Part shown: in pieces, positions 6,481 through 23,342 of the stretch
Layout of the letters: the number at the start of each line of letters is the position of its first letter
Position numbering within the stretch: position 1 is the stretch's first letter
Position numbers and translations under genes: made by a program
NCBI GenBank assembly: GCA_947168565.1
Contig: CAMVMM010000022.1
Coordinates: forward strand, 1-34,175
Direction of reading: 5' to 3'
Origin: an uncultured Clostridia bacterium
Lineage (GTDB): Bacteria > Bacillota > Clostridia > Christensenellales > CAG-138
DNA: 34,175 nucleotides
Notes under the pieces: generated by a model
What the model saw: only the letters and a program-made list of their open reading frames with translations
Told to the model about the DNA's origin: nothing
Database searches by the model: none

Positions 6481-9400
6481 TTAGTCTTCCTTCTTCCTGA
6501 AGAGCACGATGCCTGCGCCTGCCACTACTGCCGCGATACCTGCACCGACCATAGCGATGGTACCGGTGGGAGGTGCGGGCGGGGTGGTGGGCTCGGGAGT
6601 GGGCTCACCGGGAACGGCGGTGGGCTCTACCGGGGGTTCGGTGGGCTCTACCGGGGGTTCGGTGGGCTCCACGGGAGGCTCGGTGGGCTCTACCGGGGGT
6701 TCGGTGGGCTCTACCGGGGGCTCGGTGGGCTCTACCGGGGGCTCGGTGGGCTGAACGGGTTCATCAACGATGGTGATGGTGCCGTCCGTCCACATAAGGT
6801 CTACGCTCTGCTCATGGGAGTCGGGCATATAGACCATTTCAAGAACCTCAAGGTCGAGATCAAGCACGGAGCCGACCTCCGCATTTTCGGAAACGCGGAA
6901 GTTTACGGTAAAGATGTTGCCGGTGCCGGAGAAGGGATTCTCGGGAACGGGGGCAACTGCCGCATAGCGGATGGAGCCGGGGATGGTCTCATAATCGAGC
7001 ACGTTGAAGCCTTCGCGCGCGATGATCTCGTGCATGAACGGGCCGCTCTCGATGCTCTCGATGGTGAGAAGCTCGGTGTCGTAGTCGATGGTGAGGGTCA
7101 GACCGTGAGCAAGATAGTTGCCGTCGATAAGAAGCTCAACGGGAACGAGCTCGCCGGGGGCCGCCTCGTAATCGGGAACGGTAAGCTCGGCATACTGCTC
7201 CATGGGAGGCTCGGTGGGCTCTACCGGGGGTTCGGTGGGCTCTACCGGAGGCTCGGTGGGCTCGGTGCCGACGGTGACGTATGCGGGAACCGCAACGTTA
7301 TCGATGGGGGTGTTTTCGCCGCCAAGCGGGAAGTTGATGAACTCAGCCACCACGGGGATGAAGCCGTAGCTGCCGTTTGCAATGCTCTCGCTCGCCTTGA
7401 ACCTTGCGGTGAAGATGATGCCTTCAGCGGTGAAGGGATCGGTGGGCATCATGACGCCAACGCGGACGGAACCTGCGATGGTGGTGTGATCGATGATCTG
7501 GGTGCCGCCGAGGTCGATGACCTGCATGAGGACGTCGCCGCGGGTGGTGCCGAGAACCTCGAAGTTCGCCTCGTCGTAATTGAGCTGGAGGTTCAGACCA
7601 TGAGCCTCATACTCGCCCTCGATGCGCACGGAAACCTCAAACTCCTCGCCGGGCTCAACGGACTCGGGAGCTTCTACATAGAAGCCGACCTGACCGGGAG
7701 CGGGGGTCACGATGGGAGCCTGGGTGGGCTGCTCGGTGGGAACCGCAGTGGGTTCGGCGGTGGGCTCAGCGGTGGGCTGGGGCTCGCCGCCCTCGCCGAA
7801 GAACTCGACCTGGTCGATCCAGATCTCGTAACCATCATACATATTGTCGTAGAACGCAAGGTAGATGGTGTTTCCGGCATACTCGGAGAGATCGAACTCA
7901 TAGTGGGTCCAGGGATCATCGTAGCCGCTGGGAGCGTTGATGTTGCCCTGAAGCAGAACCATGGAGTTCACGTCGGGAGCAAGACCAACGTACACGGAGA
8001 AGGTCTCGGGATACATGCTGTTCGCGTTGCTTGCATAGAAGCTTACGCGAGCGGAGCCGTTGGGGAGGGTAACGGCGGGAGAGATCGCCCAGTTGTCAGC
8101 CTGATAAGCGCCAACGTAGTCCACGAAGGAGTAGCTGAGGATGAACCTGCTGCCCTCGTGAGCAAACGCGGTGTAGTCATAACCGCCGGGGTTGTTGTCC
8201 GAAGATACCCAGTTGGTGTTGTCAACGCCGAGGAAGGTCCATGCGTTCACGTCCTCATCGGTCTCGAAGTAGTAGCCTGCGATGAGGCCGTCCGGTCCGG
8301 GAGCGGGAGGATTGGTGGGCTGCACGGGAGGATTGGTGGGCTGAGAGGTGGGAGCCGCAGTGGGCTGGGGCTCGCCGCTGTCGGTGATCTCAAGATCAAC
8401 GCGGTCGTTCTGGCCGCCCATGCTCACGGTGAAGGTGTAGGTCTTGCCCGCCTCGAACTGATAGTTGTCATAACGGCCGGGGATGCTGCCGTTGGAGGAA
8501 GCGATCCAGATGCGGTCGCCCGGAGTCGGGTTGGTGATGCACCAGTCGTAGGTGCCGGCGGGAACCATAACGCTGCCCTGGCCGGTGACGATGATGTTCT
8601 GAGTGGTGAGTACGCCGTCCGCATTCTCGGGGATCTTGTACTCGAACGCTTCGTAAACGCCTGCGGGGGCGTTGCCGCTCTGGGTCAGACCGCCCGTTTC
8701 GGGGATGATGCTGCCGTAAGCGGTGGCGTCGGCATCAAGAAGCATCTGATAGCCGGAGCCGTCGCCCCAAACGTCAGCGGGAAGGTTCAGCACAACGGTT
8801 GCGTAGCCGCCGGGCGCCGGAGGATCGGTGGGCTCCACGGGCGGGTTGGTGGGCTGAGAGGTGGGAGTCGGAGTGGGCTGGGGCTCGCCGCTGTCGGTGA
8901 TCTCAAGATCAACGCGGTCGTTCTGGCCGCCCATGCTCAGGGTGAAGGTGTAGGTCTTATTGGCCTCGAACACGAAATCATCGGCTCTGCCTGCAGCGGT
9001 GCCGTAGTCGGTTGCGATCCAGATGGTGCCCGCGTTATCGGGGTTGGTGATAACGTAGTCGTAGGTGCCGGCAGGCACGGTGATGGCAACGCTGCCGTTG
9101 ATTACGAAATTCTGGGCATAGGGAGAACAGTCCGCATTCTCGGGGATCTTGTATTCAAAGTCGGCATAGCTGGTGCCGGTGAAGGTGCCGGTTGCGGGGA
9201 TGATGGTGCCGAAGGCAGTCGCATCCGCGTCAAGAAGCATCTGATAGCCGGTGCCGTCGCCCCAGATATCCTCGGGAACGTTCAGCACAACGGTGGCATT
9301 GCCGCCGGGTGCCGGAGGATTGGTGGGAGCCTCGGTGGGAGCCTCAGTGGGAACCTCAGTGGGAACCTCGGTGGGCTCGTCGGTGGGAGCCGGAGTGGGC

Positions 9401-9981
9401 TGATCGCCGCCGCCGGTTACCTCAACCGCAGCGCCCACAGCGGTGGACTCGATCGGGGTGTTGCTGCCGCCGATGGGCATATTGAAGAACTCGGTAACAA
9501 CGGGCATGATGTTGTAGATGCCGTTTGCCGCGCCTTCCTTTACCACAAACCTCACGGTGAACACGGAACCCTGAGCGGTGAAGCCATCCGTGGGCATCAT
9601 AACGCCAAGACGAACCGAACCGGGGATGGTGGTGTAGTCAAGGATCTGAGTGCCGCCGAGGTCGATGACCTGCATGAGAACGTCGCCACGGGTGGTGCCG
9701 ACAGCCTCAAAGGTATTGGCATCGTAGTTCAGCTGGAAATTCAGGCCATGAGCCTCGTAGGTGCCGTTAAGATTAACGGTGACCGAGAACTCTTCGCCTA
9801 CCGCCGCAGTTGCGGGAGCTTCAACGGTGAAGCTGCCTGCATCCGCAGGGGTAACGGGGGTGCCGGGCCTGCTCTCGTCGTTGCCGGGAGCGGGCGCAGT
9901 CTGCGTCATGGCAAATGCGGGAACGGCTACAAGGGAAAGAACCATTGCCACCGCAACTACCATTGCAAGAAATTTCTTCAT
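6481..9981 (-). CDS. Wall-anchored scaffoldin: three cohesins, two DUF2436, one cleaved-adhesin domain
   Basis: 1166 aa from the ATG at 9981 (AGGAG nine bases upstream). Order: signal peptide 1-24; cohesin 1 about 50-191; Pro/Thr linker; DUF2436 about 230-366; linker; DUF2436 about 395-537; linker; cleaved-adhesin (choice-of-anchor J-like) about 565-733; linker; cohesin 2 about 765-905; linker; cohesin 3 about 930-1075; a PTEPPVE-repeat linker; then APPTG, a hydrophobic span and RKKED, a variant LPXTG sorting signal. Cohesin signs are the opening VxxGEEFxVxV, an LNYDxxxFE strand and a late FTxRFxxxE strand. Cohesins 1 and 2 share TTRGDVLMQVIDLGGTQI; cohesin 3 is clearly divergent. DUF2436 repeats WGDGxGYQMLLDADAT, as in gingipains. 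The protein should display dockerin-bearing partners, several encoded just upstream. No sortase gene is in the window. It has its own promoter and a structured leader. Confidence 0.88.
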   Translation of the reverse strand: MKKFLAMVVAVAMVLSLVAVPAFAMTQTAPAPGNDESRPGTPVTPADAGSFTVEAPATAAVGEEFSVTVNLNGTYEAHGLNFQLNYDANTFEAVGTTRGDVLMQVIDLGGTQILDYTTIPGSVRLGVMMPTDGFTAQGSVFTVRFVVKEGAANGIYNIMPVVTEFFNMPIGGSNTPIESTAVGAAVEVTGGGDQPTPAPTDEPTEVPTEVPTEAPTEAPTNPPAPGGNATVVLNVPEDIWGDGTGYQMLLDADATAFGTIIPATGTFTGTSYADFEYKIPENADCSPYAQNFVINGSVAITVPAGTYDYVITNPDNAGTIWIATDYGTAAGRADDFVFEANKTYTFTLSMGGQNDRVDLEITDSGEPQPTPTPTSQPTNPPVEPTDPPAPGGYATVVLNLPADVWGDGSGYQMLLDADATAYGSIIPETGGLTQSGNAPAGVYEAFEYKIPENADGVLTTQNIIVTGQGSVMVPAGTYDWCITNPTPGDRIWIASSNGSIPGRYDNYQFEAGKTYTFTVSMGGQNDRVDLEITDSGEPQPTAAPTSQPTNPPVQPTNPPAPGPDGLIAGYYFETDEDVNAWTFLGVDNTNWVSSDNNPGGYDYTAFAHEGSRFILSYSFVDYVGAYQADNWAISPAVTLPNGSARVSFYASNANSMYPETFSVYVGLAPDVNSMVLLQGNINAPSGYDDPWTHYEFDLSEYAGNTIYLAFYDNMYDGYEIWIDQVEFFGEGGEPQPTAEPTAEPTAVPTEQPTQAPIVTPAPGQVGFYVEAPESVEPGEEFEVSVRIEGEYEAHGLNLQLNYDEANFEVLGTTRGDVLMQVIDLGGTQIIDHTTIAGSVRVGVMMPTDPFTAEGIIFTARFKASESIANGSYGFIPVVAEFINFPLGGENTPIDNVAVPAYVTVGTEPTEPPVEPTEPPVEPTEPPMEQYAELTVPDYEAAPGELVPVELLIDGNYLAHGLTLTIDYDTELLTIESIESGPFMHEIIAREGFNVLDYETIPGSIRYAAVAPVPENPFSGTGNIFTVNFRVSENAEVGSVLDLDLEVLEMVYMPDSHEQSVDLMWTDGTITIVDEPVQPTEPPVEPTEPPVEPTEPPVEPTEPPVEPTEPPVEPTEPPVEPTAVPGEPTPEPTTPPAPPTGTIAMVGAGIAAVVAGAGIVLFRKKED
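6618..6764 (-). repeat. Seven 21-bp repeats coding the PTEPPVE linker
   Basis: The unit CGGTGGGCTCTACCGGGGGTT repeats about six times plus a degenerate seventh. It encodes the flexible spacer between cohesin 3 and the wall anchor. A shorter array of the same unit lies near 7208-7264 between cohesins 2 and 3. Copy number is likely to vary between strains. Confidence 0.85.
8996..9255 (-). repeat. 260-bp segment identical to 20776-21035
   Basis: Inside the first DUF2436 domain of the scaffoldin. By direct comparison it matches 20776-21035 base for base (constant offset 11780), with mismatches immediately outside both ends. Confidence 0.85.
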
Positions 9982-9985
9982 GCGT

Positions 9986-10005
9986 AAATCTCCTTCCAAA
10001 GATTT
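9986..10005 (-). promoter_or_regulatory. Hairpin enclosing the scaffoldin ribosome binding site
   Basis: In the mRNA AAATCT pairs with AGATTT around the 8-base loop TTGGAAGG, so the AAGGAG Shine-Dalgarno lies in the loop and 3' stem. The same arrangement precedes the 1153-aa dockerin gene (23348-23365). It could tune translation; this is inference. Confidence 0.5.
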
Positions 10006-10010
10006 ATTAA

Positions 10011-10104
10011 GTCTAATGCGCGGTCCATGATGCCCGCTCAAGGGGAGCGGGAAGCGCGGACCGGCAGTAGCTTCGAGATTGGATGCGCGGCGCATAAGTT
10101 AGAC
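10011..10104 (-). promoter_or_regulatory. Folded 5' leader of the scaffoldin mRNA
   Basis: GTCTA and ATGCGC (10104-10090, 4-nt bulge) can pair with GCGCATTAGAC (10021-10011), closing a domain. The domain holds a hairpin of CGGTCC/GGACCG with an inner CCCGCTC/GAGCGGG stem (about 10021-10062). It lies between the promoter and the ribosome binding site hairpin. I do not recognise a known riboswitch class. Confidence 0.45.
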
Positions 10105-10143
10105 AGAGCTCTAATCTGCGGGAGCGCATATTGATACGGTAAC

Positions 10144-10172
10144 AGTATATCAGAAAGCGGTCGATATTGCAA
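10144..10172 (-). promoter_or_regulatory. Extended -10 promoter of the scaffoldin gene
   Basis: Minus strand: TTGCAA (10172-10167), 17-bp spacer ending TGA, TATACT (10149-10144). This implies a leader of about 155 nt. Confidence 0.7.
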
Positions 10173-10336
10173 TCATTTTTTATGCTTTGCCCCAAAAAAA
10201 TTTTTGCCTGTTTTGTAAGCATCTGTATATTCCCGATCGGCAGCGGAATACTTGCGCTTCCGTTTGCGCGCTTGCTTCGCCGCCCGATTTACCGTGTGCA
10301 AAATGATTTTTCTATGAACAAAGCATAATAATAGTG

Positions 10337-10361
10337 AAAACCCCGCGCCCTGCGGGGTTTT
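10337..10361. terminator. Perfect-stem intrinsic terminator after the 793-aa dockerin gene
   Basis: AAAACCCCGC (10337-10346), 5-nt loop, GCGGGGTTTT (10352-10361). Symmetric, so it can work on both strands; it separates the dockerin gene cluster from the scaffoldin promoter. Confidence 0.8.
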
Positions 10362-10434
10362 GAAAGTTCGTACGGACGGATGCTTTGGCGGCTGCTGCCT
10401 TCGGCAAACGCCGTGCGCCTGCGGGTCAAATCAG

Positions 10435-10471
10435 GCCTTTCCGGCAAGCCGGGCATCACTTGCCGAAAGGC
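10435..10471 (-). terminator. Long hairpin directly after the 793-aa dockerin gene
   Basis: GCCTTTCCGGCAAG (10435-10448) pairs with CTTGCCGAAAGGC (10459-10471) with one bulge, 24 bp after the stop. There is no U-tract. It may protect the 3' end or act with the terminator at 10337-10361. A second, weaker stem lies at about 10386-10413. Confidence 0.45.
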
Positions 10472-10495
10472 AAAACCAGCTCGGCGCAAGGCGGG

Positions 10496-12877
10496 CTACG
10501 CCAGTCCCGCCGCCATGCGAAGCACCTGCACCGCGTCCGCAATGCTCACGTATCCGTCGCCGTTCACGTCCGAAAGCGCAAGCGCCCTGCCCTCAAGCAG
10601 CGAAAGCTCCATCGAGTGCCGCAGAATGAGCAGCGCGTCCGCGGCTGTGATGCCGCCGCTTAAATCGGCGTCGCCCAAAAGCCCCGCGTCGCTCACGCCC
10701 TCGGCGCTGATATAGTCCACGTTCAGCCTAAAAAGGCGCAGATCGGTATAGTGGCGGAAGCCGACCCTGATATTCTGCCCTGCGTAATCATTAAGGTAAA
10801 CTATCCTTTCCGAGGGATCGCGCGGCGCTATGAAATACGCAAGCTCGTCGCTCCAGGTTTCGCCGCCGTCCGTGGACACGTAGATGCCGAGCGGCTCCAT
10901 ATAGCCGTCGGGATCCTGCCCGTTCATCCAGAATTTGATGCTCGTGCCGCAGAATTCCGGCGTTATCATCCAGTTGTCGGTGCCGAACTGCCCCGCGCCC
11001 TCGCCAAAGGAGAAGCTTGCCGCGCAGCCCGCGCCCTCGTAAAGATTGATATAGGGCTCGTCCATGCTCCAGCGCCAGCTCAGCTCATCGCCGTCCGCGT
11101 CCTCAAATTCAAAGCCCTGCAAAAGCGGATCGGACTCAAAATCCCACACTGTTGCGTTCGGATCGAGGAAGCGCGCGGTGATCTCGGTATCGTTATATAT
11201 GGGCTCGCCGCCGTAGTTCCAGTTCTGAAACTCCCTGTCCGGGTGCTCCGGCACGGCGGGGAAGGAGGCTTCATCAAGCACAGTGCCGGGCGGCACGAGC
11301 CTTTCCTCTATAAGCGAGCCGTTCACGCCGTCTATAAAGCGCACGGCAAGCTCGTTTCCCGCTATGGGGCCTGTGGGAAGGTCATCCACCGTGTAAAGGC
11401 AGCAGAGCTCATGCCCCGCGCTGCCGATAACCCCAAGCGGCGCGGCGCTGCCGGTGGCGGGGTCGATAGTATAAAGCCCGTTGTCGTAGCTTGCGGTGTA
11501 CTGCGCCCAGAAGAGCTGATTTGTGTTGTGATCCCAAACCATATCCTGAAAATACTGAAGCCCCACGCCGATTGGGCCGACGGGAGTGCATACGGCGGTT
11601 TCAAGATCCACGCGCACAAGCATGGCGCTGCTTTGATGGGCGGTAAGGCCGTAGCAGTTGCCCTCGCCGTCTATCGCAATGCTCATCAGATTATCGTTTA
11701 TTCCCGTGAACGGCGCAACCCTCGTCACGTTTCCCGTGGCAAGCTCCACAATGCCGAGATAGCGCGGCTCATCGGAGCCGGTTCTGCCGCAGAGCGCAAA
11801 CATTCTGTCGCTCGAATGATCGTACGCCATGGAAAAAACGCCGTCCGCGCAGGAGCCGCCGGGGAAAACGATTTGATTTGTTACGGGATCCATCACGTAC
11901 ATCCTTGTGTCCGTGCCCATGGAGGCGTGCATATAGCCATACACCATGCCGCCCGCGAACGCCGCCGCGTAGGTTTGGCCGAACGGCTCGAGCATGGGCA
12001 TGAGCTCCGTTACCTGCGAAGGGTCGTAATCATTGAACGCGACCCAATGCCCGGTATACGCGCCGCTCATATCGTAAACCGAGATGCCCCGAAGCTCCAC
12101 AGCGGGGGGCGCGGCAAGAACCGTGACGCTTGCCGAGGCGGAAACGGAGGGGTTTGCGAAGCTTGTGACGGTGATCGTGGCGCTGCCCTCGCTCACGCCG
12201 GTCACAACGCCCGTTTCATCCACCGTGGCAACGGCGGTATTATCTATTGAAAAGCTTGCGCTCGTGTCAAACGCGGTTTCGGGCAGCATGGCGTATTCCA
12301 CCTGCACCCTTCGGCCCGTTTTCACCACCACGGGCTGCACCGAAACGGACGCGGGCAGCACCGGAGCGCCGACGTATACGTTGTCCAGATACGCGCAGTC
12401 CCCGTCGGCATCCACGCTTCCGTCCTTTTTAAACTCAAAGGAAAGCTCGTGCGTGCCTGCGGGAAGATAGCCGGCGTAACGCTCCCAGCCCTCGCGCCTG
12501 CCCCACTCCTCAATAAGGTCGCCGTCGATGCGGAACTGAAGGCCGTCCCACACAAGGCCGAGGCCGTTTTCGTTGCCCTCGCCCCTCGACCAAAAATCAA
12601 AGGAGATCACGTCCCCCTCGTTCGCATTCACCGTGGTGCGCACCGAGGAGCGTGAATCGGCAACGCCGGAGTTTCCGCTTTTGGCATATTCGCCCTCCAC
12701 CGCCCAGGGGTATTCGGGGCCTGTGGAAAACTCAAGCGTTCCGCCCGGCACGTTCAGCGCCTCGTTCAGATTCGCGGCGTCAAGCGCGCCCGCTTCCGCC
12801 GTCACAGCGCTCTTGGGCAGGCTGAGGCAGCCCAAAAGCATGAATGCGGCAGTAATAACAGCAAGTATTTTTTTCAT
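10496..12877 (-). CDS. Secreted dockerin protein with Big_2, propeller-like, InlB-repeat and cleaved-adhesin domains
   Basis: 793 aa; GGAG lies six bases before the ATG. Order: signal peptide about 1-31; jelly-roll-like N-domain about 36-172 (opens with NLNEALNVPGG and ends AYLDNVYVGAP); Big_2 Ig-like domain about 177-256; YVTN/NHL-like repeat region about 257-506 (strands such as MSIAIDGEGNCYGL and GLYTIDPATG), probably a beta-propeller; InlB-type repeat about 507-576; cleaved-adhesin domain about 577-727 (DNWMITPEF, IYVSTDGGETW, FRHYTD); type I dockerin about 728-793 with loops DADLSGGITAADA and DVNGDGYVSIADA. The leader sequence contains LLGC, a poor lipobox, so lipidation is possible but not favoured. 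Last gene of a run of dockerin paralogues, ended by a strong terminator. Probable role: a cohesin-bound adhesin. Confidence 0.85.
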   Translation of the reverse strand: MKKILAVITAAFMLLGCLSLPKSAVTAEAGALDAANLNEALNVPGGTLEFSTGPEYPWAVEGEYAKSGNSGVADSRSSVRTTVNANEGDVISFDFWSRGEGNENGLGLVWDGLQFRIDGDLIEEWGRREGWERYAGYLPAGTHELSFEFKKDGSVDADGDCAYLDNVYVGAPVLPASVSVQPVVVKTGRRVQVEYAMLPETAFDTSASFSIDNTAVATVDETGVVTGVSEGSATITVTSFANPSVSASASVTVLAAPPAVELRGISVYDMSGAYTGHWVAFNDYDPSQVTELMPMLEPFGQTYAAAFAGGMVYGYMHASMGTDTRMYVMDPVTNQIVFPGGSCADGVFSMAYDHSSDRMFALCGRTGSDEPRYLGIVELATGNVTRVAPFTGINDNLMSIAIDGEGNCYGLTAHQSSAMLVRVDLETAVCTPVGPIGVGLQYFQDMVWDHNTNQLFWAQYTASYDNGLYTIDPATGSAAPLGVIGSAGHELCCLYTVDDLPTGPIAGNELAVRFIDGVNGSLIEERLVPPGTVLDEASFPAVPEHPDREFQNWNYGGEPIYNDTEITARFLDPNATVWDFESDPLLQGFEFEDADGDELSWRWSMDEPYINLYEGAGCAASFSFGEGAGQFGTDNWMITPEFCGTSIKFWMNGQDPDGYMEPLGIYVSTDGGETWSDELAYFIAPRDPSERIVYLNDYAGQNIRVGFRHYTDLRLFRLNVDYISAEGVSDAGLLGDADLSGGITAADALLILRHSMELSLLEGRALALSDVNGDGYVSIADAVQVLRMAAGLA

Positions 12878-12923
12878 GTGTACTCCGTTAAATTGATTTT
12901 ATAAACTATGATTTTTGATCAAA

Positions 12924-15433: not shown

Positions 15434-15444
15434 CACGTGTGATA

Positions 15445-17127
15445 TCATAAATTTGTTATAAGCCCCATGGCATAGCGCAGGATCTGCACGGCGTCCGCCA
15501 CGGTAAGCTCTCCGTCGCGGTTCACGTCGCCGTTTGCAAATGCCTGACCCTCAAGCGTGATAAGCTCCAGCGAATGGCGCAGCGCCAGCACCGCGTCCGC
15601 AATCGTCACGCTGCCGCTGAGGTCGGTATCGCCGGGGTTGCCCGCTTCATCGGGCGCGGCGGTGGTGTAAAGGCCGGTCAGCTCGGTGCCGTCGCCTATC
15701 ACGCCCAGCAGCTCCGCCTCGGCGGTTTCCGTATTCAGCACGTAGAGCCCGTGCTCAGTGGTGGTGTTGTACGCCCTTGCCCAATACATCATTCCGGTTT
15801 CGTAATCATACGTCATGGACTGCAGATACGCAAGCCCCATGCCAAGCTCGCCCACGAGGGTGCATTCGGCGGTATCCAGATCCACTCTGTACAGCTTTGC
15901 GTTCTGCGTGTCCATGGTAAGGCCGTAGCCAACACCGCGGTCGTCTATTGCAAAGGTCATCATCATGGGCGCGGTGAGCTCGCCGACGTATTCTATCTCG
16001 CCGGTTTCAAGATCGACTATGCCGAGGTATCTGGTTTCCATCATGCCGCAGACCGCGTACATATTGCCGCGGGTATAGTCATACGCCATGGAGAAAACGC
16101 CGTCCTGATGCGCATTTTCGGAATTTGTGACCTGGCGGCTCTCGTGATCCATTTTAAAGAAGGTGCGGATGGGGTTTTGATCGGTGCCGTCGAAATAATA
16201 GCCGTACACGGTGCCGTCATAGTACGCGGCGGCGGACACGTTGAACGACATAAGGTTCAGCCCGCTCACCGTTTCCGGCTCCGCGTCCGTAAAGCTGACC
16301 CAGCGCATATCGTTGCTTTGATCCGCGCCGAAATCATAGGTGGCAAAGCCGTTGAGCTGCGCGATCGGCAGCGCCTCGGTCACGGTAACGGTTATATCGG
16401 TTGAAACGCTCGGCACTGCGGCGCTTGCAATGGTCACGGTGGTAACGCCCACGGCTATGCCCTTCACAACGCCCTCATCGGTAACGGTGGCAATGCCCGG
16501 GTTTGCCGAGGTGAAGGTGACCGCCTTATTGAAGGCTTCCTCCGGCAGCACCTCGTATTCTATTTGCACCCTGCGGCCGGCGCTGACGGTAACGTCCCCC
16601 GCCACGATGGAGCCCGCCATAACGGGCTGTGTGAGATGCACGTTGTCCACAAAGGCGCAGTCCTCGCCCACGTTCACGCTGCCGTCCTTTTTGAAGGTGA
16701 ACTGCACCGTATGCACTCCGGCGGAAAGCTCGCAGGAGTAGCTGTCCCACTCGGGATGATTGCCCCATTTCGCCTCAAGCTCGCCGTCTATATAAAGGTA
16801 CAGCCCGTCCCACGCGTTGCTGTCCGCGCCCTCGCCGCAGGAGCGGAAATCGAAGGTGAGCAGCTCGCCCGCGCCTGCGGAAACGGTGGTTTGAACCGAG
16901 GAGGTGGAGGACGAAACGCCGGAATTTGTGCTTTTTGCGGCGTCCCCGTCCACGACCCAGGGGTATTCCCCGCCGGTGGTGAACTGAAGCGTGCCTCCCG
17001 GCACGTTCAGCGCCTCGTTAAGATCGGCTGCGTCCGCAGGCATGGCGGAGCGCTCGGCAAGGGCCGGCGCCGCCGAAAGCGAAAGCAGCATGCAGAAAGC
17101 AAGCATGAGTGCAAAAGCCTTTTTCAT
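15445..17127 (-). CDS. Short secreted dockerin protein: N-domain, Big_2, propeller-like repeats, dockerin
   Basis: 560 aa; AAGGAG upstream of the ATG. Signal peptide 1-24 (APALA then ERS); jelly-roll-like N-domain about 34-170; Big_2 about 175-255; YVTN/NHL-like repeats about 260-492 (RYLGIVDLETGEIEYVG, KLYRVDLDTAECTLVG, GLYVLNTETAEAELLG); dockerin about 500-560 with loops DTDLSGSVTIADA and DVNRDGELTVADA. It is the minimal member of the family: InlB-repeat, DUF2436 and cleaved-adhesin domains are all missing between propeller and dockerin. The shared N-terminal half is therefore likely to be the core functional unit, with ligand unknown. It may be co-transcribed with 17191-19590. Confidence 0.85.
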   Translation of the reverse strand: MKKAFALMLAFCMLLSLSAAPALAERSAMPADAADLNEALNVPGGTLQFTTGGEYPWVVDGDAAKSTNSGVSSSTSSVQTTVSAGAGELLTFDFRSCGEGADSNAWDGLYLYIDGELEAKWGNHPEWDSYSCELSAGVHTVQFTFKKDGSVNVGEDCAFVDNVHLTQPVMAGSIVAGDVTVSAGRRVQIEYEVLPEEAFNKAVTFTSANPGIATVTDEGVVKGIAVGVTTVTIASAAVPSVSTDITVTVTEALPIAQLNGFATYDFGADQSNDMRWVSFTDAEPETVSGLNLMSFNVSAAAYYDGTVYGYYFDGTDQNPIRTFFKMDHESRQVTNSENAHQDGVFSMAYDYTRGNMYAVCGMMETRYLGIVDLETGEIEYVGELTAPMMMTFAIDDRGVGYGLTMDTQNAKLYRVDLDTAECTLVGELGMGLAYLQSMTYDYETGMMYWARAYNTTTEHGLYVLNTETAEAELLGVIGDGTELTGLYTTAAPDEAGNPGDTDLSGSVTIADAVLALRHSLELITLEGQAFANGDVNRDGELTVADAVQILRYAMGLITNL

Positions 17128-17176
17128 ATATTTCTCCTTGTTTTATAAATTTATTATGATCATATTAGAAAATTAA

Positions 17177-17192
17177 AGCGGTGCTCACCGCT
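17177..17192 (-). terminator. Small hairpin overlapping the stop codon of the 799-aa gene
   Basis: AGCGGTG pairs with CACCGCT around a 2-nt loop, followed on the minus strand by TTAATTTTCT. Probably a weak terminator that would allow read-through into the 560-aa gene. Confidence 0.45.
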
Positions 17193-19590
17193 ATTCAAGC
17201 GTGATGAGCCCCATTGAGGCGCGAAGTATCAGCACGCTGTCCCCAAGGTTCACCTCGCCGTCGCGGTTCACGTCCGCATTGATAAGCGCCTGACCGGAGA
17301 TCGGCGCAAGCCCCATTGCATGGCGAAGCGCGATCACGGCATCCGCAAGCGTCACTTCACCGTTCAGGTCGGCATCGCCCAAAAGCCCGCTCTGCTGGCT
17401 TGAATAAACCTCGATATAGTCAAGATTCAGCCAATACATATCGGAAACTATGTAATGGCGCAGCGCAACGCGGATCCTCTGCCCCGCAAACTGCGAAAGA
17501 TCCGCCGTATACTTCGTGGGCGCACCGGTTACGGTCCATCCGGCTATCTCGCTGCTCCAGGTGTTTCCGCCGTCCGTTGACACGAACACGCCGATATACT
17601 CCCTGCAATAGTCGGTATCCTGCCCGTTTGCCCAGAAGCTTATCCTGCTTCCGGTAAATTCGGGCGTGATCAGCCAGTTGTCCGGCGTGAGCGGCTGAAG
17701 CGTCTCGCCGTCAAACGAGGCGCTTGCCACATGGCCGAGGCCCTCATGGAAAATGTAGGTCCAGTTATCGCCGTAGCGCCACATCCAGTTATGCCCGTCG
17801 CCGTCGGCATCCATCGCCGCAAAGCCCTGCTGCGCGGGATTTGTTTCAAAATCCCAAACGGCCGTCACCACGGGCGGGTTCGGGTCCTCATCGCCGTAGA
17901 GCGCGGTCACGGTTATATCCGAATGTATCGGCGCGCCGTCATAATCCCAGCCCAGGAACTCGCGGCCTGCGTGCGCGGGCGGCTGCGGATAATCCGCCTG
18001 CGAAAGCGCATAGCCGTCCTCAACTGTGATACTGCCGATGAGCGCGGAATCCACGCCGTCCACAAAGCGCACGATATGCCCTTCCTGCTCGATGGGGCCG
18101 AGGGGCAGATCGTTTCGGATAAACATACAGGTGATTTCCATAAACCTGCCGCCTATCTCGCCCAGCGGGCGGGCCTGCGCATTTGCGGGATCTATCGAGT
18201 AAAGCCCAAAGCTCTCCTGATGCAGCACACGCGCCCAGTATAAAAGCCCGGTTTCATTATCAAAAGCCATCGACTGAACGTAATTCATGCCGAGGCCCGT
18301 GCCGCCTATAAGGGTGCAGACGGCGGTTTCGGTGTTCATGCGGTAGAGCCTTGAATTATTCGCGTCGCCCCCAAGCACGTAGGCGTTGCCGTTCAAATCT
18401 ATCGCCATGGTCATGGGCTTGCCGGAAACGCCCGTAATGGTGCCGATCTCCGTCATGCTGCCGGTTTCAAGCTCAACCTCGGCAAGATAGCGCGCGCCCT
18501 GACCCACTATTGCAAACATTCTGCCGGCGCGGTGATCGTATGCCATGGCATACACTATATCCGGCGAAACGGCGCCGGGGAAGCTCATTTCAAAGGTGTC
18601 GGCATTCATTATATAATACCGCCTGTCCTGACCGTTGTTCTCGGCAAGGTAGCCGTAGATATTGCCTCCGGCGAACGCGCCCGCCCAGGTATCGGGCATA
18701 TTCTCGGCATTCGTGCTGATGATGGAGGGCTCATAGCTCTCGATGCCGATCCAGCTTCCCTGACCGCTTTCTGATATATCGAGCGTAACGTAGCCCTCAA
18801 GCCTTGCCGTTGGCACGGCGGGGGCAACGGTGATGAGCGCACTTCCGCTCACGGAGGGATCGGCGGCGCTCGTAACGGTGAGCAGCGTTGAGCCGAGCGA
18901 AACCGCCGTAACCACTCCCGCTTCATCAACGCTTGCAACGGCGGGGTTCGCCGTGGAGAAGGTCACGCTTTTATCAAAGGCATCCTCCGGCAGCACGGTG
19001 TATTCCGCATAAGCCATGCGCCCCTGCGGGATCTCAAGCGGGGAAACCTCGATCCGCTGCGGCAGATTCTGCGGGCCGACGTATACGTTGTCCAGATACG
19101 CGCAGTCGCCCTCGGCATCATAGCTGTCGTCCTTCTTATAGGTGAAGGTTATAAGGTGCTCGCCCGCCTCAAGAGCGCAGGTGAAGCTGCTCCAAACGTG
19201 CTCATAGCCGCGATGCAGCACCTTTTCGCCGTCCACATACACGCGCAGGCCATCCCAATCGAAGTCCTCATAGGTGCCTTCGCCGCAGGACATATAATCG
19301 AAGCTCAGCACGTCGCCCGCCGAAGCGGAAACGGTGGTCCACACGGAGGAGGTGGAATTTGAAACGCCCTCGTTCGTGCTCTTGGCGGCATCTCCCGACA
19401 CCACCCAAGGGTATTCGCTGTCCGTTTCAAATGCGAGGCTGCCACCCGGCACGTTCAATGCTTCGTTCAGATTCGCGGCGTCCCTGCTTTGCGAGGAAAC
19501 GGGCGCATTAGCCTCCGCGCTCCGTGCAAGCGACGGTGAGAGCGAAAGCAGCATCACCAGCGCAAGCACGAAGGCAAAAATCTTTTTCAT
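17191..19590 (-). CDS. Secreted dockerin protein with Big_2, propeller-like, InlB-repeat and cleaved-adhesin domains
   Basis: 799 aa; AAGGAG before the ATG. Signal peptide about 1-29; N-domain about 38-175; Big_2 about 180-258; YVTN/NHL-like repeats about 262-510; InlB-type repeat about 515-580 (VRFVDGVDSALIGS, FLGWDYDGAPI); cleaved-adhesin about 588-730 (TPDNWLITPEFTGS, VFVSTDGGNTW, ALRHYIVSDMYWLNLDYIEV), a close match to the gingipain haemagglutinin-type domain; dockerin about 737-799 with loops DADLNGEVTLADA and DVNRDGEVNLGDS. Same architecture as the 793-aa protein. It has a good promoter (19640-19668) and probably leads a transcript running through the next dockerin genes with partial termination between them. 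Confidence 0.85.
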   Translation of the reverse strand: MKKIFAFVLALVMLLSLSPSLARSAEANAPVSSQSRDAANLNEALNVPGGSLAFETDSEYPWVVSGDAAKSTNEGVSNSTSSVWTTVSASAGDVLSFDYMSCGEGTYEDFDWDGLRVYVDGEKVLHRGYEHVWSSFTCALEAGEHLITFTYKKDDSYDAEGDCAYLDNVYVGPQNLPQRIEVSPLEIPQGRMAYAEYTVLPEDAFDKSVTFSTANPAVASVDEAGVVTAVSLGSTLLTVTSAADPSVSGSALITVAPAVPTARLEGYVTLDISESGQGSWIGIESYEPSIISTNAENMPDTWAGAFAGGNIYGYLAENNGQDRRYYIMNADTFEMSFPGAVSPDIVYAMAYDHRAGRMFAIVGQGARYLAEVELETGSMTEIGTITGVSGKPMTMAIDLNGNAYVLGGDANNSRLYRMNTETAVCTLIGGTGLGMNYVQSMAFDNETGLLYWARVLHQESFGLYSIDPANAQARPLGEIGGRFMEITCMFIRNDLPLGPIEQEGHIVRFVDGVDSALIGSITVEDGYALSQADYPQPPAHAGREFLGWDYDGAPIHSDITVTALYGDEDPNPPVVTAVWDFETNPAQQGFAAMDADGDGHNWMWRYGDNWTYIFHEGLGHVASASFDGETLQPLTPDNWLITPEFTGSRISFWANGQDTDYCREYIGVFVSTDGGNTWSSEIAGWTVTGAPTKYTADLSQFAGQRIRVALRHYIVSDMYWLNLDYIEVYSSQQSGLLGDADLNGEVTLADAVIALRHAMGLAPISGQALINADVNRDGEVNLGDSVLILRASMGLITLE

Positions 19591-19639
19591 GGTGTATCTC
19601 CTTATGTTTACTTACGGGAGAAAGCTTCCCGCAGGAAAC

Positions 19640-19668
19640 ATTATACTATACGGATACATGAATTACAA
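19640..19668 (-). promoter_or_regulatory. Sigma-A promoter of the 799-aa dockerin gene
   Basis: Minus strand: TTGTAA (19668-19663), 17-bp spacer, TATAAT (19645-19640). The short leader contains a hairpin, CGGGA/TCCCG, just before the ribosome binding site. Confidence 0.7.
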
Positions 19669-19728
19669 GATAAAAATAAAGTGTTTGCTTTATATCATAT
19701 AGCTCATGTTCGCAAATCCGCTTTCGCC

Positions 19729-19806
19729 CGATTCTCTTTTCTTTTTTCTCTTTTCACCCTTCACTTTTCATCCTCCACCCTTCTCTGTCTGTCCTTCTCT
19801 TTTTCC
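19729..19806. repeat. Polypyrimidine tract
   Basis: Nearly pure C/T on the plus strand (many CTTTTC and CTTC units) between the promoter of the 799-aa gene and the terminator of the 1153-aa gene. No gene is seen in it. Confidence 0.6.
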
Positions 19807-19819
19807 AAAAAAGCAAAAA

Positions 19820-19851
19820 TGCCGCCCTCCCCCCGAAGGGGAAGGGCGGCA
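19820..19851 (-). terminator. Intrinsic terminator of the 1153-aa dockerin gene
   Basis: TGCCGCCCT pairs with AGGGCGGCA, with inner CCCC/GGGG around CCGAA. On the minus strand it is followed by TTTTTGCTTTTTT. Confidence 0.85.
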
Positions 19852-19880
19852 GTAAGTTAGCCGTTAAGCTATTTCCTCAA

Positions 19881-22800
19881 TTACAGCTCGATAAGCTCAA
19901 GAGCCGCACGGAGGATGAGGATGCAGTCCTCGATGGTGACGTTGCCGTCCTGGTTTGCATCAGCCTGCTCAAGAGCGTCGCCGGTCAGGGTGTCAAGACC
20001 CATGATGTGACGCAGAGCGAGGATGGCGTCCGCAACGGTGACTTCGCCGTTGAGGTCGGTGTCGCCGATGATGCCGGTGATCGGGGGCTGACCGCCTTCG
20101 CCGAAGAACTCAACCTGGTCGATCCAGATCTCGTAGCCGTCATACATATTATCGTAGAAGGCAAGGTAGATGGTCTGGCCCGCATAAGCGGAGAGGTCGA
20201 ACTCATAGTGGGTCCAGGGATCCTCATAGCCGCTGGGAGCGTTGATGTTGCCCTGAAGCAGAGTCATGGCAGCGGGATCAGCGGAGGTGCCAACGTATAC
20301 CGAGAAGGTCTCGGGATACATGCTGTTCGCGTTGCTTGCATAGAAGCTTACGCGAGCGGAGCCGCTGGGAAGGGTAACGGCGGGAGAGATCGCCCAGTTG
20401 TCGGCCTGGTATGCGCCAACGTAGTCCACGAAGGAGTAGCTCATGATGAACCTGCTGCCCTCGTGAGCAAGCACGGTGTAGTCATAGCCGCCGGGGTTGT
20501 TGTCGGAGGATACCCACTCGGAGTCACCGTTGTTGATGAAGGTCCAAGCGTTCACGTCCTCGTCGGTCTCGAAGTAGTAACCTGCGATGAGGCCCTCTTC
20601 CGGAGGAGTGGTGGGATCTACCGGAGGAGTGGTGGGAGACGGAGGAACGGGGGTGGGCTGGGGCTCGCCGTTGTCGGTGATCTCAAGATCAACGCGGTCA
20701 TTCTGGCCGCCCATGCTCACGGTGAAGGTGTAGGTCTTGTTCGCTTCGAATACGAAGTCATCGGCTCTGCCCGCGGCGGTGCCGTAGTCGGTTGCGATCC
20801 AGATGGTGCCCGCGTTATCGGGGTTGGTGATAACGTAGTCGTAGGTGCCGGCAGGCACGGTGATGGCAACGCTGCCGTTGATTACGAAATTCTGGGCATA
20901 GGGAGAACAGTCCGCATTCTCGGGGATCTTGTATTCAAAGTCGGCATAGCTGGTGCCGGTGAAGGTGCCGGTTGCGGGGATGATGGTGCCGAAGGCAGTC
21001 GCATCCGCGTCAAGAAGCATCTGATAGCCGGTGCCATCGCCCCAGACATCGGTGGGAACGTTCAGAACAACGGTCACGTCGCCGCCTACCGGAGGATTGG
21101 TGGGATCTACCGGAGGATTGGTGGGAGTCGGAGGATTGGTCGGAGTCGGAGGATTGGTGGGGGTGGGAGCGCCGCCCTCGGTGATCTCAAGATCAACGCG
21201 GTCGTTCTGGCCGCCGAAGCTCACGGTGAAGGTATAGGTCTTGCCTGCCTCGAACTCGTAGTCGTCATAACGGCCGGGGATGGTGCCGTTGGAGGAAGCG
21301 ATCCAGATACGGTCGCCGGGAGTCGGGTTGGTGATGCACCAGTCGTAGACGCCCGCGGGAACCTCAACGGTGCCCTGACCGGTGACGATGATGTTCTGGG
21401 TGGTGCAGGAGCCGTCCGCATTCTCGGGAATCTTGTACTCGAACTCGTCGTACACGCCTGCGGGAGCGTCGCCGCCCTGGGTCAGTGCACCCGTTTCGGG
21501 GATGATGCTGCCGTAAGCGGTGGCATCGGCATCAAGAAGCATCTGATAGCCGGAGCCGTCGCCCCAAACGTCAGCGGGAAGATTGAGAATTATGGTCGCG
21601 TTGGTGGCGTTGGGGTCACGATAGCGAGCCTTAACGGTGAGATCGGTGTAAACGGGAGCGCCGTTGTAGTCCCAGCCGGTGAACTCATAGCCCTCATGGG
21701 TCGGGGGGGTCGGGAAGTCGGCCTCGTCAAGAACGGTGCCTGCCTCAACGGTCATGGTGCCGATGGTGCTGTTGTCAAGACCGTCCACGAAGGTAACGGT
21801 GACGTCGGGCATTACGATGGGTCCGATGTCGAGGTTATCCTTGGAGTAGATGATGGTGAGCTCCTGCTTGTCGGCGGGGAATGCGCCCATGAACTCAGCA
21901 GCGCCGGTAGCGGTGTCGATGATGTACAGACCGTTGCTGGTTGCGGAAGCATACTGCGCCCAGTAGAGCTGGTTGGTGATATGATCCCAGGTCATGCCCT
22001 GAACATACTGAAGCGGAACGCCGGTGGAGCCGATTGCGGTGGCAGCGCCGGTTTCAAGATTCAGGCTGTACAGGGTGGAAGCGGTGGAATTGAGGTTGAG
22101 GGTGTAGGCATTGCCTTCGCCGTCGATAGCAAGGGTCATGGGAGCGTCGGAGCCCATGCCGTCGATGGGAGCGATGTTGGTAACGATACCGGTCGCAAGA
22201 TCAACGGTTGCGATGGACCTCGGAGTGGAGGCGCCGGTTACCGCGTACATGGTCTGGTTCGCATGGTTGTACGCCATAGCGAAAACGCCGCTCACGTTCG
22301 AAGCATCGGTGCCGGGGAAGGTCGCGGTGTAGGTTTCGGTATCAACGATGTAGAAGCGGGTATCAGCACCGCTGTTGCCGTACAGATAGCCGTAGATGTT
22401 GCCGCCCGCATAGGTGCCGCCGAAGGTCTGGCCTTCGGTGAGGGCGCCGAGAACCTCGAAGGTGGCGGGGTCGTAATCCTGGAAGCGGTTCCAGCTGCCG
22501 TCGCCGGGGTAGTTCGCCTCAAGGGTAACGGCGGGAAGGGGCTCGGTAACGGTTACGTTCACGGTGGCGGTAACGGTGGGAACCGCAACGCTCGCGATGG
22601 TAACGGTGGTGTTGCCCTGAGCAACGCCGGTTACAACGCCGTTTTCGTCAACAGTCGCAATAGCGGTGTTGGCGGAGGTGAAGGTAACGCTCTTGTCGTA
22701 GGCTTCCTGGGGAAGAACCTCGTACTGGATCTGAGCGCGGCGGTTGCCGGGAACGGTGACGTCCTGAGCGTTGATGGACTGAGCCATAACGGGCGCGCCA

Positions 22801-23342
22801 ACGTATACGTTGTCTACCATGAAGTAGTCGCCGGTGGGGTTGACGCTGCCGTCCTTGGTGTAGGACCAAACGAGCTCATGGCTGCCGGCGGTGAGGCCGT
22901 AGGCAAAGGACTCGAACTCTTCGTTGTCGTAAGCGCCCTTGGTGAGAACCACGGTGCCGTCAACAGCGAAATCGCAGTGATCCCAGAAGGTGTAGGAGCC
23001 TTCGCCCCATGCCTTGAAATCAAACTGGACGATGTCGCCCTCTGCCGCGGTAACGGTGGTGGAAACCGAAGAGGTGGAGTTGGATACGCCGGCATTGCTG
23101 CTCTGAGCGGCGTCACCCGCAACCACCCAGGGGTAGGTGCCTTCGGAGGTGAAGCTGAGGGAACCGCCCGCCACGTTCAGCGCCTCGTTGAGGTTCGCTG
23201 CGTCACGGGTGGATTCACGGGGAGCGAGACCGGTTGCCGTTTCGGGCAGCCTGACATCGCCGCGGTTCTCTGCGATCGCGGGAACGGTTACAAGGGAAAG
23301 AACCATTGCCATTGCGATCACGAATGCGAAGATTTTCTTCAT
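19881..23342 (-). CDS. Large secreted dockerin protein: Big_2, propeller-like, InlB-repeat, two DUF2436, cleaved-adhesin
   Basis: 1153 aa from the ATG at 23342 (AAGGAG upstream; an in-frame TTG six codons earlier overlaps the ribosome binding site). Signal peptide 1-24; N-domain about 50-184; Big_2 about 189-268; YVTN/NHL-like repeats about 269-513; InlB-type repeat about 514-582; DUF2436 about 583-724; Pro/Thr linker; DUF2436 about 757-893; linker; cleaved-adhesin about 917-1085; dockerin about 1092-1153 with loops DTDLNGEVTVADA and DANQDGNVTIEDC. The block of two DUF2436 and one cleaved-adhesin is shared with the scaffoldin, with the DUF2436 types in the opposite order and one stretch identical over 260 bp. 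Codon use (gcc, gtg, aac) is more uniform than in the smaller paralogues and like that of the scaffoldin. It shares a leader with the scaffoldin gene, so the two are probably co-regulated. Confidence 0.87.
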   Translation of the reverse strand: MKKIFAFVIAMAMVLSLVTVPAIAENRGDVRLPETATGLAPRESTRDAANLNEALNVAGGSLSFTSEGTYPWVVAGDAAQSSNAGVSNSTSSVSTTVTAAEGDIVQFDFKAWGEGSYTFWDHCDFAVDGTVVLTKGAYDNEEFESFAYGLTAGSHELVWSYTKDGSVNPTGDYFMVDNVYVGAPVMAQSINAQDVTVPGNRRAQIQYEVLPQEAYDKSVTFTSANTAIATVDENGVVTGVAQGNTTVTIASVAVPTVTATVNVTVTEPLPAVTLEANYPGDGSWNRFQDYDPATFEVLGALTEGQTFGGTYAGGNIYGYLYGNSGADTRFYIVDTETYTATFPGTDASNVSGVFAMAYNHANQTMYAVTGASTPRSIATVDLATGIVTNIAPIDGMGSDAPMTLAIDGEGNAYTLNLNSTASTLYSLNLETGAATAIGSTGVPLQYVQGMTWDHITNQLYWAQYASATSNGLYIIDTATGAAEFMGAFPADKQELTIIYSKDNLDIGPIVMPDVTVTFVDGLDNSTIGTMTVEAGTVLDEADFPTPPTHEGYEFTGWDYNGAPVYTDLTVKARYRDPNATNATIILNLPADVWGDGSGYQMLLDADATAYGSIIPETGALTQGGDAPAGVYDEFEYKIPENADGSCTTQNIIVTGQGTVEVPAGVYDWCITNPTPGDRIWIASSNGTIPGRYDDYEFEAGKTYTFTVSFGGQNDRVDLEITEGGAPTPTNPPTPTNPPTPTNPPVDPTNPPVGGDVTVVLNVPTDVWGDGTGYQMLLDADATAFGTIIPATGTFTGTSYADFEYKIPENADCSPYAQNFVINGSVAITVPAGTYDYVITNPDNAGTIWIATDYGTAAGRADDFVFEANKTYTFTVSMGGQNDRVDLEITDNGEPQPTPVPPSPTTPPVDPTTPPEEGLIAGYYFETDEDVNAWTFINNGDSEWVSSDNNPGGYDYTVLAHEGSRFIMSYSFVDYVGAYQADNWAISPAVTLPSGSARVSFYASNANSMYPETFSVYVGTSADPAAMTLLQGNINAPSGYEDPWTHYEFDLSAYAGQTIYLAFYDNMYDGYEIWIDQVEFFGEGGQPPITGIIGDTDLNGEVTVADAILALRHIMGLDTLTGDALEQADANQDGNVTIEDCILILRAALELIEL
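20776..21035 (-). repeat. 260-bp segment identical to 8996-9255
   Basis: Inside the second DUF2436 domain of the 1153-aa dockerin protein. It is the partner of the scaffoldin segment; flanking DNA of the same domain differs at many third positions. Confidence 0.85.

What the first reader, a model, noticed from the sequence alone, without database searches (positions are those of the whole stretch)
6481..23342. A cohesin/dockerin surface complex built of adhesins, not polysaccharidases
Seen: a sortase-type scaffoldin with three cohesins (6481-9981) and five neighbouring secreted proteins that each end in a two-loop type I dockerin; a sixth dockerin protein lies at 96-1829. None shows a glycoside hydrolase, lyase or recognisable CBM. 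Known: cohesin/dockerin pairs build cellulosomes and amylosomes. Inferred: this locus builds a cell-wall multiprotein adhesin platform for host mucus, protein or other bacteria.
Basis: partly seen in the sequence, partly recalled or inferred. Interest (0 to 1): 0.85.

Follow-up and report, generated by a model that had tools for sequence, protein, structure and literature searches.

The report
Enzyme-poor cellulosome-like surface adhesin scaffold
A gut-type Clostridia bacterium appears to use the snap-together parts of cellulosomes, the machines known for digesting plant fibre, to hang sticky proteins and proteases on its surface instead of sugar-cutting enzymes.

Summary
6481-9981(-) is a sortase-type scaffoldin with three cohesins; five neighbouring secreted proteins and a sixth at 96-1829 end in two-loop dockerins; none has a recognised glycosidase, lyase or CBM. 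The locus is part of a genome-wide system: 24 cohesins in 6 ORFs, 66 dockerins in 65 ORFs. Pfam shows no glycosidase, lyase or esterase in the 65. Cargo includes adhesin modules, leucine-rich repeats, redoxins and all 6 of the genome's 6 subtilases; its two GH13 ORFs are undocked. Eleven of 11 genomes of the genus hold cohesins and dockerins; in two whose dockerin proteins were largely scanned, only a peptidoglycan-type lysozyme domain appeared. At the same locus, seven species keep the last two cohesins (one is cut by its contig end) but vary a cassette of Porphyromonas-type modules (DUF2436, cleaved adhesin). In three, the first cohesin is replaced by the dockerin protein's own N-terminal body, which supports these proteins belonging on the scaffold. 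'Adhesins only' is too narrow genome-wide. Binding and ligands are untested. Non-cellulosomal cohesin/dockerin systems are known, so this is a new variant of a known kind; surveys requiring dockerin-glycosidases would miss it.

The parts
6481..9981 (-). scaffoldin CDS (1166 aa): cohesin-DUF2436-DUF2436-Cleaved_Adhesin-cohesin-cohesin-linker-PPTG anchor
9448..9831 (-). cohesin 1
   Evidence: (own cohesin profile)
8905..9303 (-). DUF2436 module a of the scaffoldin
   Evidence: E 2.9e-43
8392..8808 (-). DUF2436 module b of the scaffoldin; 58% identical (75 of 130) to P. gingivalis PrtH domain (PDB 9isp)
7786..8304 (-). Cleaved_Adhesin / choice-of-anchor-J module of the scaffoldin
7300..7683 (-). 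cohesin 2 (67% identical to cohesin 1)
6799..7182 (-). cohesin 3, of a different class: groups with the first cohesin of C15 and the single cohesins of C6 and C31 (support 96/95)
6484..6573 (-). C-terminal sortase-type sorting signal (PPTG, hydrophobic stretch, RKKED)
   Evidence: sequence; (models below cut-off); sortases in genome
10496..12877 (-). dockerin protein d2: Big_2, propeller-like, Cleaved_Adhesin, dockerin
10511..10678 (-). dockerin of d2
13005..15359 (-). dockerin protein d3: Big_2, propeller-like (DUF4394), DUF2436, dockerin
13242..13661 (-). DUF2436 of d3
13032..13199 (-). dockerin of d3
15445..17127 (-). dockerin protein d4: beta-rich N-terminal domain, Big_2, propeller, dockerin (model pLDDT 88)
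15472..15636 (-). dockerin of d4
17191..19590 (-). dockerin protein d5: Big_2, propeller-like, Cleaved_Adhesin, dockerin
17218..17382 (-). dockerin of d5
19881..23342 (-). dockerin protein d6: Big_2, propeller-like, DUF2436 x2, Cleaved_Adhesin, dockerin; shares its module cassette with the scaffoldin
20091..20618 (-). Cleaved_Adhesin module of d6 (86% identical to that of the scaffoldin)
20685..21611 (-). two DUF2436 modules of d6 (94% and 84% identical to scaffoldin modules a and b)
19905..20069 (-). dockerin of d6
96..1829 (-). dockerin protein d1 (577 aa); N-terminal domain without a database match, possibly C39/papain-like peptidase by recalled motif only
105..275 (-). dockerin of d1

Best explanation
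The locus is the adhesin branch of a genome-wide, sortase-anchored cohesin/dockerin surface-display system. SHOWN by sequence: a three-cohesin scaffoldin with a wall-sorting-type tail, secreted partners with two-loop dockerins, no dockerin-bearing glycosidase recognised among 65 dockerin ORFs, and subtilases, redoxins, leucine-rich-repeat and adhesin-type proteins as cargo. INFERRED: sortase links the scaffoldin to the wall; d2-d6 (and d1) dock by calcium-dependent dockerin-cohesin binding; the propeller, DUF2436 and cleaved-adhesin modules of cargo and scaffold together form a multivalent adhesive surface, probably for proteins or glycoproteins of host, feed or other microbes; elsewhere in the genome the same docking code places proteases and thiol-redox proteins on the surface. 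Cohesin 3, of another class, may have another partner (inferred).
For: 24 cohesins in 6 ORFs (PF00963 alone 23) and 66 dockerins in 65 ORFs. Pfam on all 65: no GH/PL/CE family. 6 of 6 subtilases bear a dockerin, while the 2 GH13 ORFs do not and GH3 is absent. 4 sortase matches. Cohesins in 11 of 11 genus genomes (1-23 matches), dockerins in 11 of 11 (11-83). Conserved place: the gene after the scaffoldin (4967-5689) is also next to it in 5 of 6 relatives compared (the sixth is cut by its contig end), and MurI lies on the other side in the 5 of 6 whose stretch reaches that far (G002 through L095). Of 7 scaffoldins at this locus 4 begin with a cohesin and 3 (G001, G006, G009) begin with the d6-type N-terminal body; G009 residues 28-761 match own d6 at 67% and 620-1310 match own scaffoldin at 44%. 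Against all 23 own cohesins of A6, the first, next-to-last and last cohesins match window cohesins 1, 2 and 3 best in 3 of 3, 5 of 5 and 5 of 5 cases. Cohesins lead the Foldseek list for the scaffoldin.
Against: No binding, localisation or expression data. The MAG is 91.7% complete, so docked glycosidases could lie in the missing part. 12 of 65 dockerin ORFs have no match at E <= 0.01 besides dockerin, EF-hand, FG-GAP or low-complexity models (my count), and several more have only sub-cut-off matches; they could hide unknown enzymes. One docked protein has two Cthe_2159 carbohydrate-binding domains, one cohesin/dockerin protein has C-type lectin domains, and a docked subtilase has a sub-cut-off CBM35 match, so glycan targets are not excluded. 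In G002 a cohesin/dockerin protein has a phage-tail-lysozyme domain. In G002 and G004 only the first 25 families were listed (9 and 14 hidden) and 7 G002 ORFs were not scanned. LPXTG models stay under their cut-offs. 'Adhesin' rests on homology; the binding partner of DUF2436 is unknown even in P. gingivalis (PMC11448926, passages).
Confidence: 0.62

Rival explanations
1. A proteolytic surface machine: the main job of the system is extracellular protein breakdown by docked subtilases, and the locus supplies substrate-binding subunits, as CBMs do in cellulosomes.
For: 6 of 6 subtilases in the genome bear dockerins, with D and H motifs in 6 of 6 and GTSMA in 5 of 6; DUF2436 and cleaved-adhesin modules sit beside proteases in gingipains (PMC5266723, passages); two own docked subtilases carry Cleaved_Adhesin themselves; no docked glycosidase recognised.
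Against: Only 6 of 65 docked proteins are subtilases; no recognised protease is encoded at this locus; leucine-rich-repeat, VWA, CotH and redoxin cargo do not fit a purely proteolytic machine.
Confidence: 0.2
2. A cellulosome or amylosome relative whose enzymes are unrecognised or missing from the assembly.
For: 12 of 65 dockerin ORFs have no other recognised domain; a Cthe_2159 carbohydrate-binding protein is docked; the MAG is incomplete.
Against: No docked GH/PL/CE in 65 own ORFs, and no plant-cell-wall or starch enzyme among the listed families of 127 of 134 ORFs in G002 and G004 or in the 14 scanned singly; no CBM family in the six cohesin-bearing ORFs; GH3 absent and two GH13 ORFs undocked.
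Confidence: 0.08
3. The adhesin proteins do not form a complex here: the cohesins serve other partners and the local dockerins are released or used elsewhere.
For: Six cohesin-bearing ORFs could compete for 66 dockerins; cohesin classes differ; no binding data.
Against: Conserved neighbourhood in relatives, and d6-type bodies fused to the scaffoldin in 3 of 7 species at this locus.
Confidence: 0.1

Closest known systems
Cellulosomes with anchored scaffoldins (Ruminococcus flavefaciens, Acetivibrio)
   Same: cohesin scaffoldins, dockerins, anchoring and adaptor scaffoldins; R. flavefaciens also docks LRR proteins, peptidases, serpins and transglutaminases (PMC5301203 and PMC2930009, passages)
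   Different: about 50% of R. flavefaciens dockerins are found with carbohydrate-active enzymes (PMC2930009, passages); here 0 of 65 ORFs
Genomes with cohesins and dockerins but few docked glycosidases: Lachnoclostridium sp. MSJ-17, Limihaloglobus sulfuriphilus, ANME archaea
   Same: MSJ-17 is described with 4 cohesin proteins, as many as 39 dockerin proteins and a single dockerin-glycosidase (PMC11557425, section 15); ANME proteins have up to 5 cohesins (PMC9012536, section 32)
   Different: the two bacteria have at most two cohesins in their largest scaffoldin; here scaffoldins with 12, at least 5 and 3 cohesins, sortase-type tails, adhesin cassettes inside the scaffoldin, and no docked glycosidase recognised
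Gingipain / HagA / PrtH adhesin modules of Porphyromonas gingivalis
   Same: DUF2436 and cleaved-adhesin modules in variable combinatorial arrays shared between surface proteins (PMC5266723, passages); 58% identity of one DUF2436 to PrtH
   Different: here in a scaffold with cohesins and dockerins, without gingipain catalytic domains
Ruminococcus bromii amylosome
   Same: dockerin/cohesin complex not aimed at cellulose (PMC6118326, passage)
   Different: starch-degrading enzymes are its cargo; none is docked here

Membership tests
Cohesin/dockerin multiprotein system | scaffoldin with two or more cohesins | tested here: met
   3 in the window; 12, 5 and 2 in other ORFs
Cohesin/dockerin multiprotein system | secreted partners with duplicated Ca-loop dockerins | tested here: met
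Cohesin/dockerin multiprotein system | cohesin-dockerin binding | not testable with these tools
   needs a binding assay
Cellulosome | dockerin-bearing glycoside hydrolases | tested here: not met
   0 of 65 dockerin ORFs by Pfam; genome 91.7% complete
Cellulosome | cellulose-binding module on the scaffoldin | tested here: not met
   no CBM family in the six cohesin-bearing ORFs, one of which runs off its contig
Amylosome | docked GH13 amylases | tested here: not met
   2 GH13 ORFs, neither with a dockerin
Sortase-anchored surface protein | LPXTG-like signal plus a sortase in the genome | tested here: inconclusive
   PPTG-hydrophobic-RKKED tail, models just below cut-off; 4 sortase matches
Gingipain/HagA adhesin modules | DUF2436 and Cleaved_Adhesin domains | tested here: met
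Gingipain | gingipain catalytic domain | tested here: not met
   no such family in the 7 window proteins

The most novel reading that the evidence does not exclude
A genus-wide class of cohesin/dockerin machine with no polysaccharide-degrading role: cohesin/dockerin as the main surface-display code, docking every subtilase and a wide set of adhesins and redox proteins, with scaffoldins whose adhesin cassette is swapped between species and exchanged with, or fused to, their own cargo, a Gram-positive-type parallel of gingipain/HagA adhesin shuffling.
Probability: 0.45. Interest if true: 0.78.

Novelty: new variant of a known kind. Interest (0 to 1): 0.63.

Why it matters
Cohesin/dockerin complexes are mostly studied as polysaccharide degraders, and a large published survey required a dockerin-glycosidase before counting a genome (PMC11557425, section 5), so a system like this is invisible to it. 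A genus with up to 83 dockerins per genome, and no docked plant-polysaccharide enzyme recognised in the three genomes looked into, would show that the docking code serves as a general surface-assembly language, make its adhesive and proteolytic roles directly testable, and offer a second setting in which to learn what DUF2436 binds.

Tried and rejected
Considered and rejected: an ordinary cellulosome or amylosome (no docked glycosidase recognised); false cohesins (profile matches and Foldseek both say cohesin); a purely local system (24 cohesins, 66 dockerins genome-wide); window dockerins as chance matches (3 of 6 fall under the Pfam cut-off, but all 6 exceed it and score 72-88 bits with the own profile; that profile was built from them, so this last part is circular).

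Led nowhere or weak: (i) a general rule of within-genome homogenisation: only 9 of 27 cleaved-adhesin modules, and 4 of the 9 DUF2436 modules (of 14) that have a same-genome partner, are closest to a module of their own genome (identical copies and matches of 120 residues or less left out), so I keep only the window case. (ii) Scaffoldin structure: 2-row alignment, pLDDT 39.3. (iii) d1 as a cysteine peptidase: motif recalled, no match. (iv) Naming the organism: one named relative only. (v) PDB 8x39, a 'serine protease' entry matching a dockerin: no paper found. (vi) Promoters and terminators: consensus only; 17 promoter-like sites against 9.0 expected, 18 terminator-like against 20.2. (vii) Candidate scaffoldin stretches of G003, G010, G004 and a second one of G001 (L201, L202, L207, L208, L213, L214) have other layouts, and the cohesins of those compared match other own cohesins or none in order; they were not counted among the seven. 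(viii) Paper PMC3035643 is not held.
Full report
WHAT WAS CHECKED. The window is the whole contig C22 of a 2.36 Mb, 54-contig draft genome (91.67% complete, 0.48% contamination). Pfam and NCBIfam find cohesins, dockerins, DUF2436, Cleaved_Adhesin/choice-of-anchor-J, Big_2 and propeller-type families, and no glycoside hydrolase, polysaccharide lyase, esterase or CBM over its cut-off.

ANATOMY. Scaffoldin: signal peptide, cohesin 1, two DUF2436, one cleaved adhesin, cohesin 2, cohesin 3, PT-rich linker, PPTG tail. d2-d6 share an N-terminal body (alignment): a beta-rich domain without a Pfam match over cut-off, Big_2 and a propeller-like region; d2, d3, d5 and d6 add adhesin modules and d4 has none. 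The d4 model (20-row alignment, mean pLDDT 88.0, pTM 0.60) gives beta domains, a propeller and a helical C-terminal dockerin region; its Foldseek matches include nidogen, TolB, LRP6 and designed six-bladed proteins, with query TM-scores of about 0.3 because single domains match. Six blades is my inference from those matches. The scaffoldin model is poor (pLDDT 39.3), yet the first five places of its Foldseek list are cohesins, and single-cohesin targets further down score TM 0.50-0.72. Gaps between the genes are 290, 63, 85, 127 and 514 bases. A 14-pair terminator-like hairpin lies after d6, and promoter-like sites lie before d6, d5 and the scaffoldin (17 promoter-like sites against 9.0 in shuffles, 18 terminator-like against 20.2), so transcription units are only suggested.

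GENOME-WIDE TEST. PF00963: 23 matches in 6 ORFs; an own profile adds one, giving 24: 12 in C15, 5 in C10 (runs off its contig), 3 in the window, 2 in C3, 1 each in C6 and C31. C15, C6 and C31 end in anchor-like tails; C3 carries two dockerins and C-type lectin domains. PF00404: 61 matches in 60 ORFs. An own dockerin profile gives 71 rows; I dropped three short rows (C2:121023, C13:1808, C18:46002) and two second fragments (C6:67352, C10:18922), leaving 66 modules in 65 ORFs, two of them cut by contig ends. All 65 were scanned with Pfam: 6, 54. None has a GH, PL or CE family listed. Present are Peptidase_S8 (6), AhpC-TSA/Redoxin (5 over the cut-off, 1 below), LRR_4 (6 over the cut-off, 5 below), Cleaved_Adhesin and/or DUF2436, VWA, CotH, CHAP, CAP, GLUG and Big_2. 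Against a sugar-free reading: two Cthe_2159 carbohydrate-binding domains in C49:469-3690, a sub-cut-off CBM35 match in a docked subtilase, and the EndoS LRR model on two LRR proteins (the LRR part, not the catalytic one). 12 of 65 have no match at E <= 0.01 besides dockerin, EF-hand, FG-GAP or low-complexity models (my count). The genome has 6 Peptidase_S8 matches and all 6 lie in dockerin ORFs. GH13 occurs in two ORFs (C17, C13), neither with a dockerin, and GH3 is absent; other GH families were not searched for outside the dockerin ORFs.

RELATIVES. PF00963 was searched in 41 genomes (own plus 40): 25 have it, including 11 of 11 of the genus, with 1-23 matches. PF00404 in the genus: 11 of 11, with 11-83 matches. 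In G002 and G004 I extracted 134 dockerin ORFs (82 and 52). Pfam tallies cover all 52 of G004 and 75 of 82 of G002; seven large G002 ORFs close to own ORFs already scanned were left out for the residue limit. Only the 25 commonest families are listed (of 39 and 34). None is a plant-cell-wall or starch enzyme; a phage-tail-lysozyme domain with an amidase domain (G002, on a cohesin/dockerin protein), a chitobiase C-terminal domain (G004) and ricin-B lectins (G002) occur. Of 19 ORFs without a 60%-coverage homologue in the own genome, 14 were scanned singly and two more are shown as first members; the other three are in the tallies only. The only named relative is 'Clostridia bacterium isolate RGIG6112', sheep omasum; its contig length, 34,923, equals that of G002:C29, so G002 is probably that MAG. 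The order is not established; Christensenellales single-cell genomes have been reported to hold dockerins and a cohesin (PMC10266427, passages), which is only a lead. DUF2436 was found in 1 of 199 sampled genomes of the phylum, the own one, and in G002 and G004.

VARIABLE SCAFFOLDIN. Seven scaffoldins at the same place were compared. Place was checked: the gene after the scaffoldin (window 4967-5689) is also next to it in G001, G002, G006, G008 and G009 (G007 is cut by its contig end), and MurI lies on the other side in G006, G007, G008, G009 and in L095 (the G001 stretch begins too late). Own: COH-DUF-DUF-CA-COH-COH. G002: COH-CA-CA-COH-COH. G008: COH-CA-CA-CA-COH-COH. G007: COH-CA-CA, then the contig ends. 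G006, G009 and G001 lack the first cohesin and begin with the N-terminal body of the dockerin proteins (in G009 and G001 with the propeller as well), then DUF2436, one or two CA, COH-COH and the anchor. G009 residues 28-761 match own d6 at 67% and 620-1310 match own scaffoldin at 44%. A protein docked in one species is thus fused to the scaffold in another, the best independent argument that d6-type proteins act on the scaffoldin. In one search each cohesin was compared with the 23 own cohesins of alignment A6: first cohesins match window cohesin 1 best in 3 of 3, next-to-last match cohesin 2 in 5 of 5, last match cohesin 3 in 5 of 5 (in G006 and G001 the last is only 41% and 34% identical). 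In the window the scaffoldin and d6 share cassette DNA at 91.8% over 512 bp and 88.0% over 498 bp, and modules at 94, 84 and 86% protein identity, against at most 68, 81 and 74% for either partner to the next nearest module. As a general rule this fails: same-genome modules are nearest in only 9 of 27 CA and 4 of 9 DUF2436 cases.

COHESIN AND DOCKERIN CLASSES. Cohesins 1 and 2 are 67% identical and lie among the main class; cohesin 3 groups with the first cohesin of C15 and the single cohesins of C6 and C31 (support 96/95). Asp/Asn/Glu/Ser fills the four side-chain ligand positions in loop 1 of 60 of 60 and in loop 2 of 56 of 60 parsed dockerins (61 rows, one unparsed; loop 2 was located with part of this pattern). 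The pair at the usual recognition positions (numbering recalled from C. thermocellum type I) is often Val/Ile with Ala/Ser and identical in both halves in only 3 of 60, so partner specificity cannot be read off.

MECHANISM. Most likely: sortase-anchored scaffoldin, dockerins bound through calcium, adhesin modules exposed both by cargo and by the scaffold. Shown: parts, conservation, fusions, absence of recognised docked glycosidases. Inferred: anchoring, binding, adhesion, ligand. What it works like: a cellulosome in its wiring. What it is a member of: a cohesin/dockerin system; it fails the tested defining features of cellulosome and amylosome (docked glycosidases, scaffoldin CBM, docked GH13).

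NOVELTY. Cohesin/dockerin pairs outside cellulosomes are known (PMC9012536, section 32, which cites Peer et al. 2009, not held), as are LRR proteins and peptidases among R. flavefaciens dockerin proteins (passages), and genomes with nearly no dockerin-glycosidases (Lachnoclostridium sp. MSJ-17, Limihaloglobus; PMC11557425, section 15). I saw no paper on a multi-cohesin system with gingipain-type adhesin cassettes in the listings, which cover only openly licensed PubMed Central papers and of which I opened few. Hence: new variant of a known kind.

Noticed in passing
G000:C10:83973-89621 and G000:C8:94999-95658: The five-cohesin ORF runs off its contig, and a contig-edge fragment on C8 begins with its last 20 residues and ends in a dockerin, so the two are probably one adaptor scaffoldin split by repeats; not joined.
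   Followed up: partly
G006 (L200), G009 (L203) and G008 (L199) against the window: Species with the fused scaffoldin show one dockerin ORF between MurI and the scaffoldin (G006, G009), against three in G008 and five in the window: fewer docked partners where the body is fused.
   Followed up: partly
window 26284-27960: ORF with repeated 'ACGDN..GQCDV'-type segments that look like RCC1 repeats (recalled, not searched); orthologues in L095, G007, G008 and G009 at the same place.
   Followed up: partly
window 24669-31851: Apparent citrate lyase cluster (CitF-, CitE-, CitD-, CitC- and CitX/G-like ORFs, named from recall) next to the adhesin locus; the members tested are conserved beside it in relatives.
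   Followed up: partly
window 33120-34175: rRNA methyltransferase-like ORF (named from recall) with an N-terminal array of KPYGER-FEG-type repeats, running off the contig end.
   Followed up: no
G000:C4:2671-5037: Three tandem dockerin-bearing redoxins with WCGPC motifs (a further one in C36): thiol-redox proteins on the outside of an apparent anaerobe.
   Followed up: partly
window 96-1829: d1 N-terminal domain has ordered Cys (IGCL), His (GHWVAV) and Asp/Asn (MDSLN) motifs that recall C39/papain-like peptidases; no database match.
   Followed up: partly
G000:C2:24500-32000 (L248): Large dockerin ORF (1541 aa) with a diverged partial DUF2436 and an unusual dockerin (GDANHDR), like those of C8:28101, C21:14579 and C6:73188: possibly a second dockerin class.
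   Followed up: no
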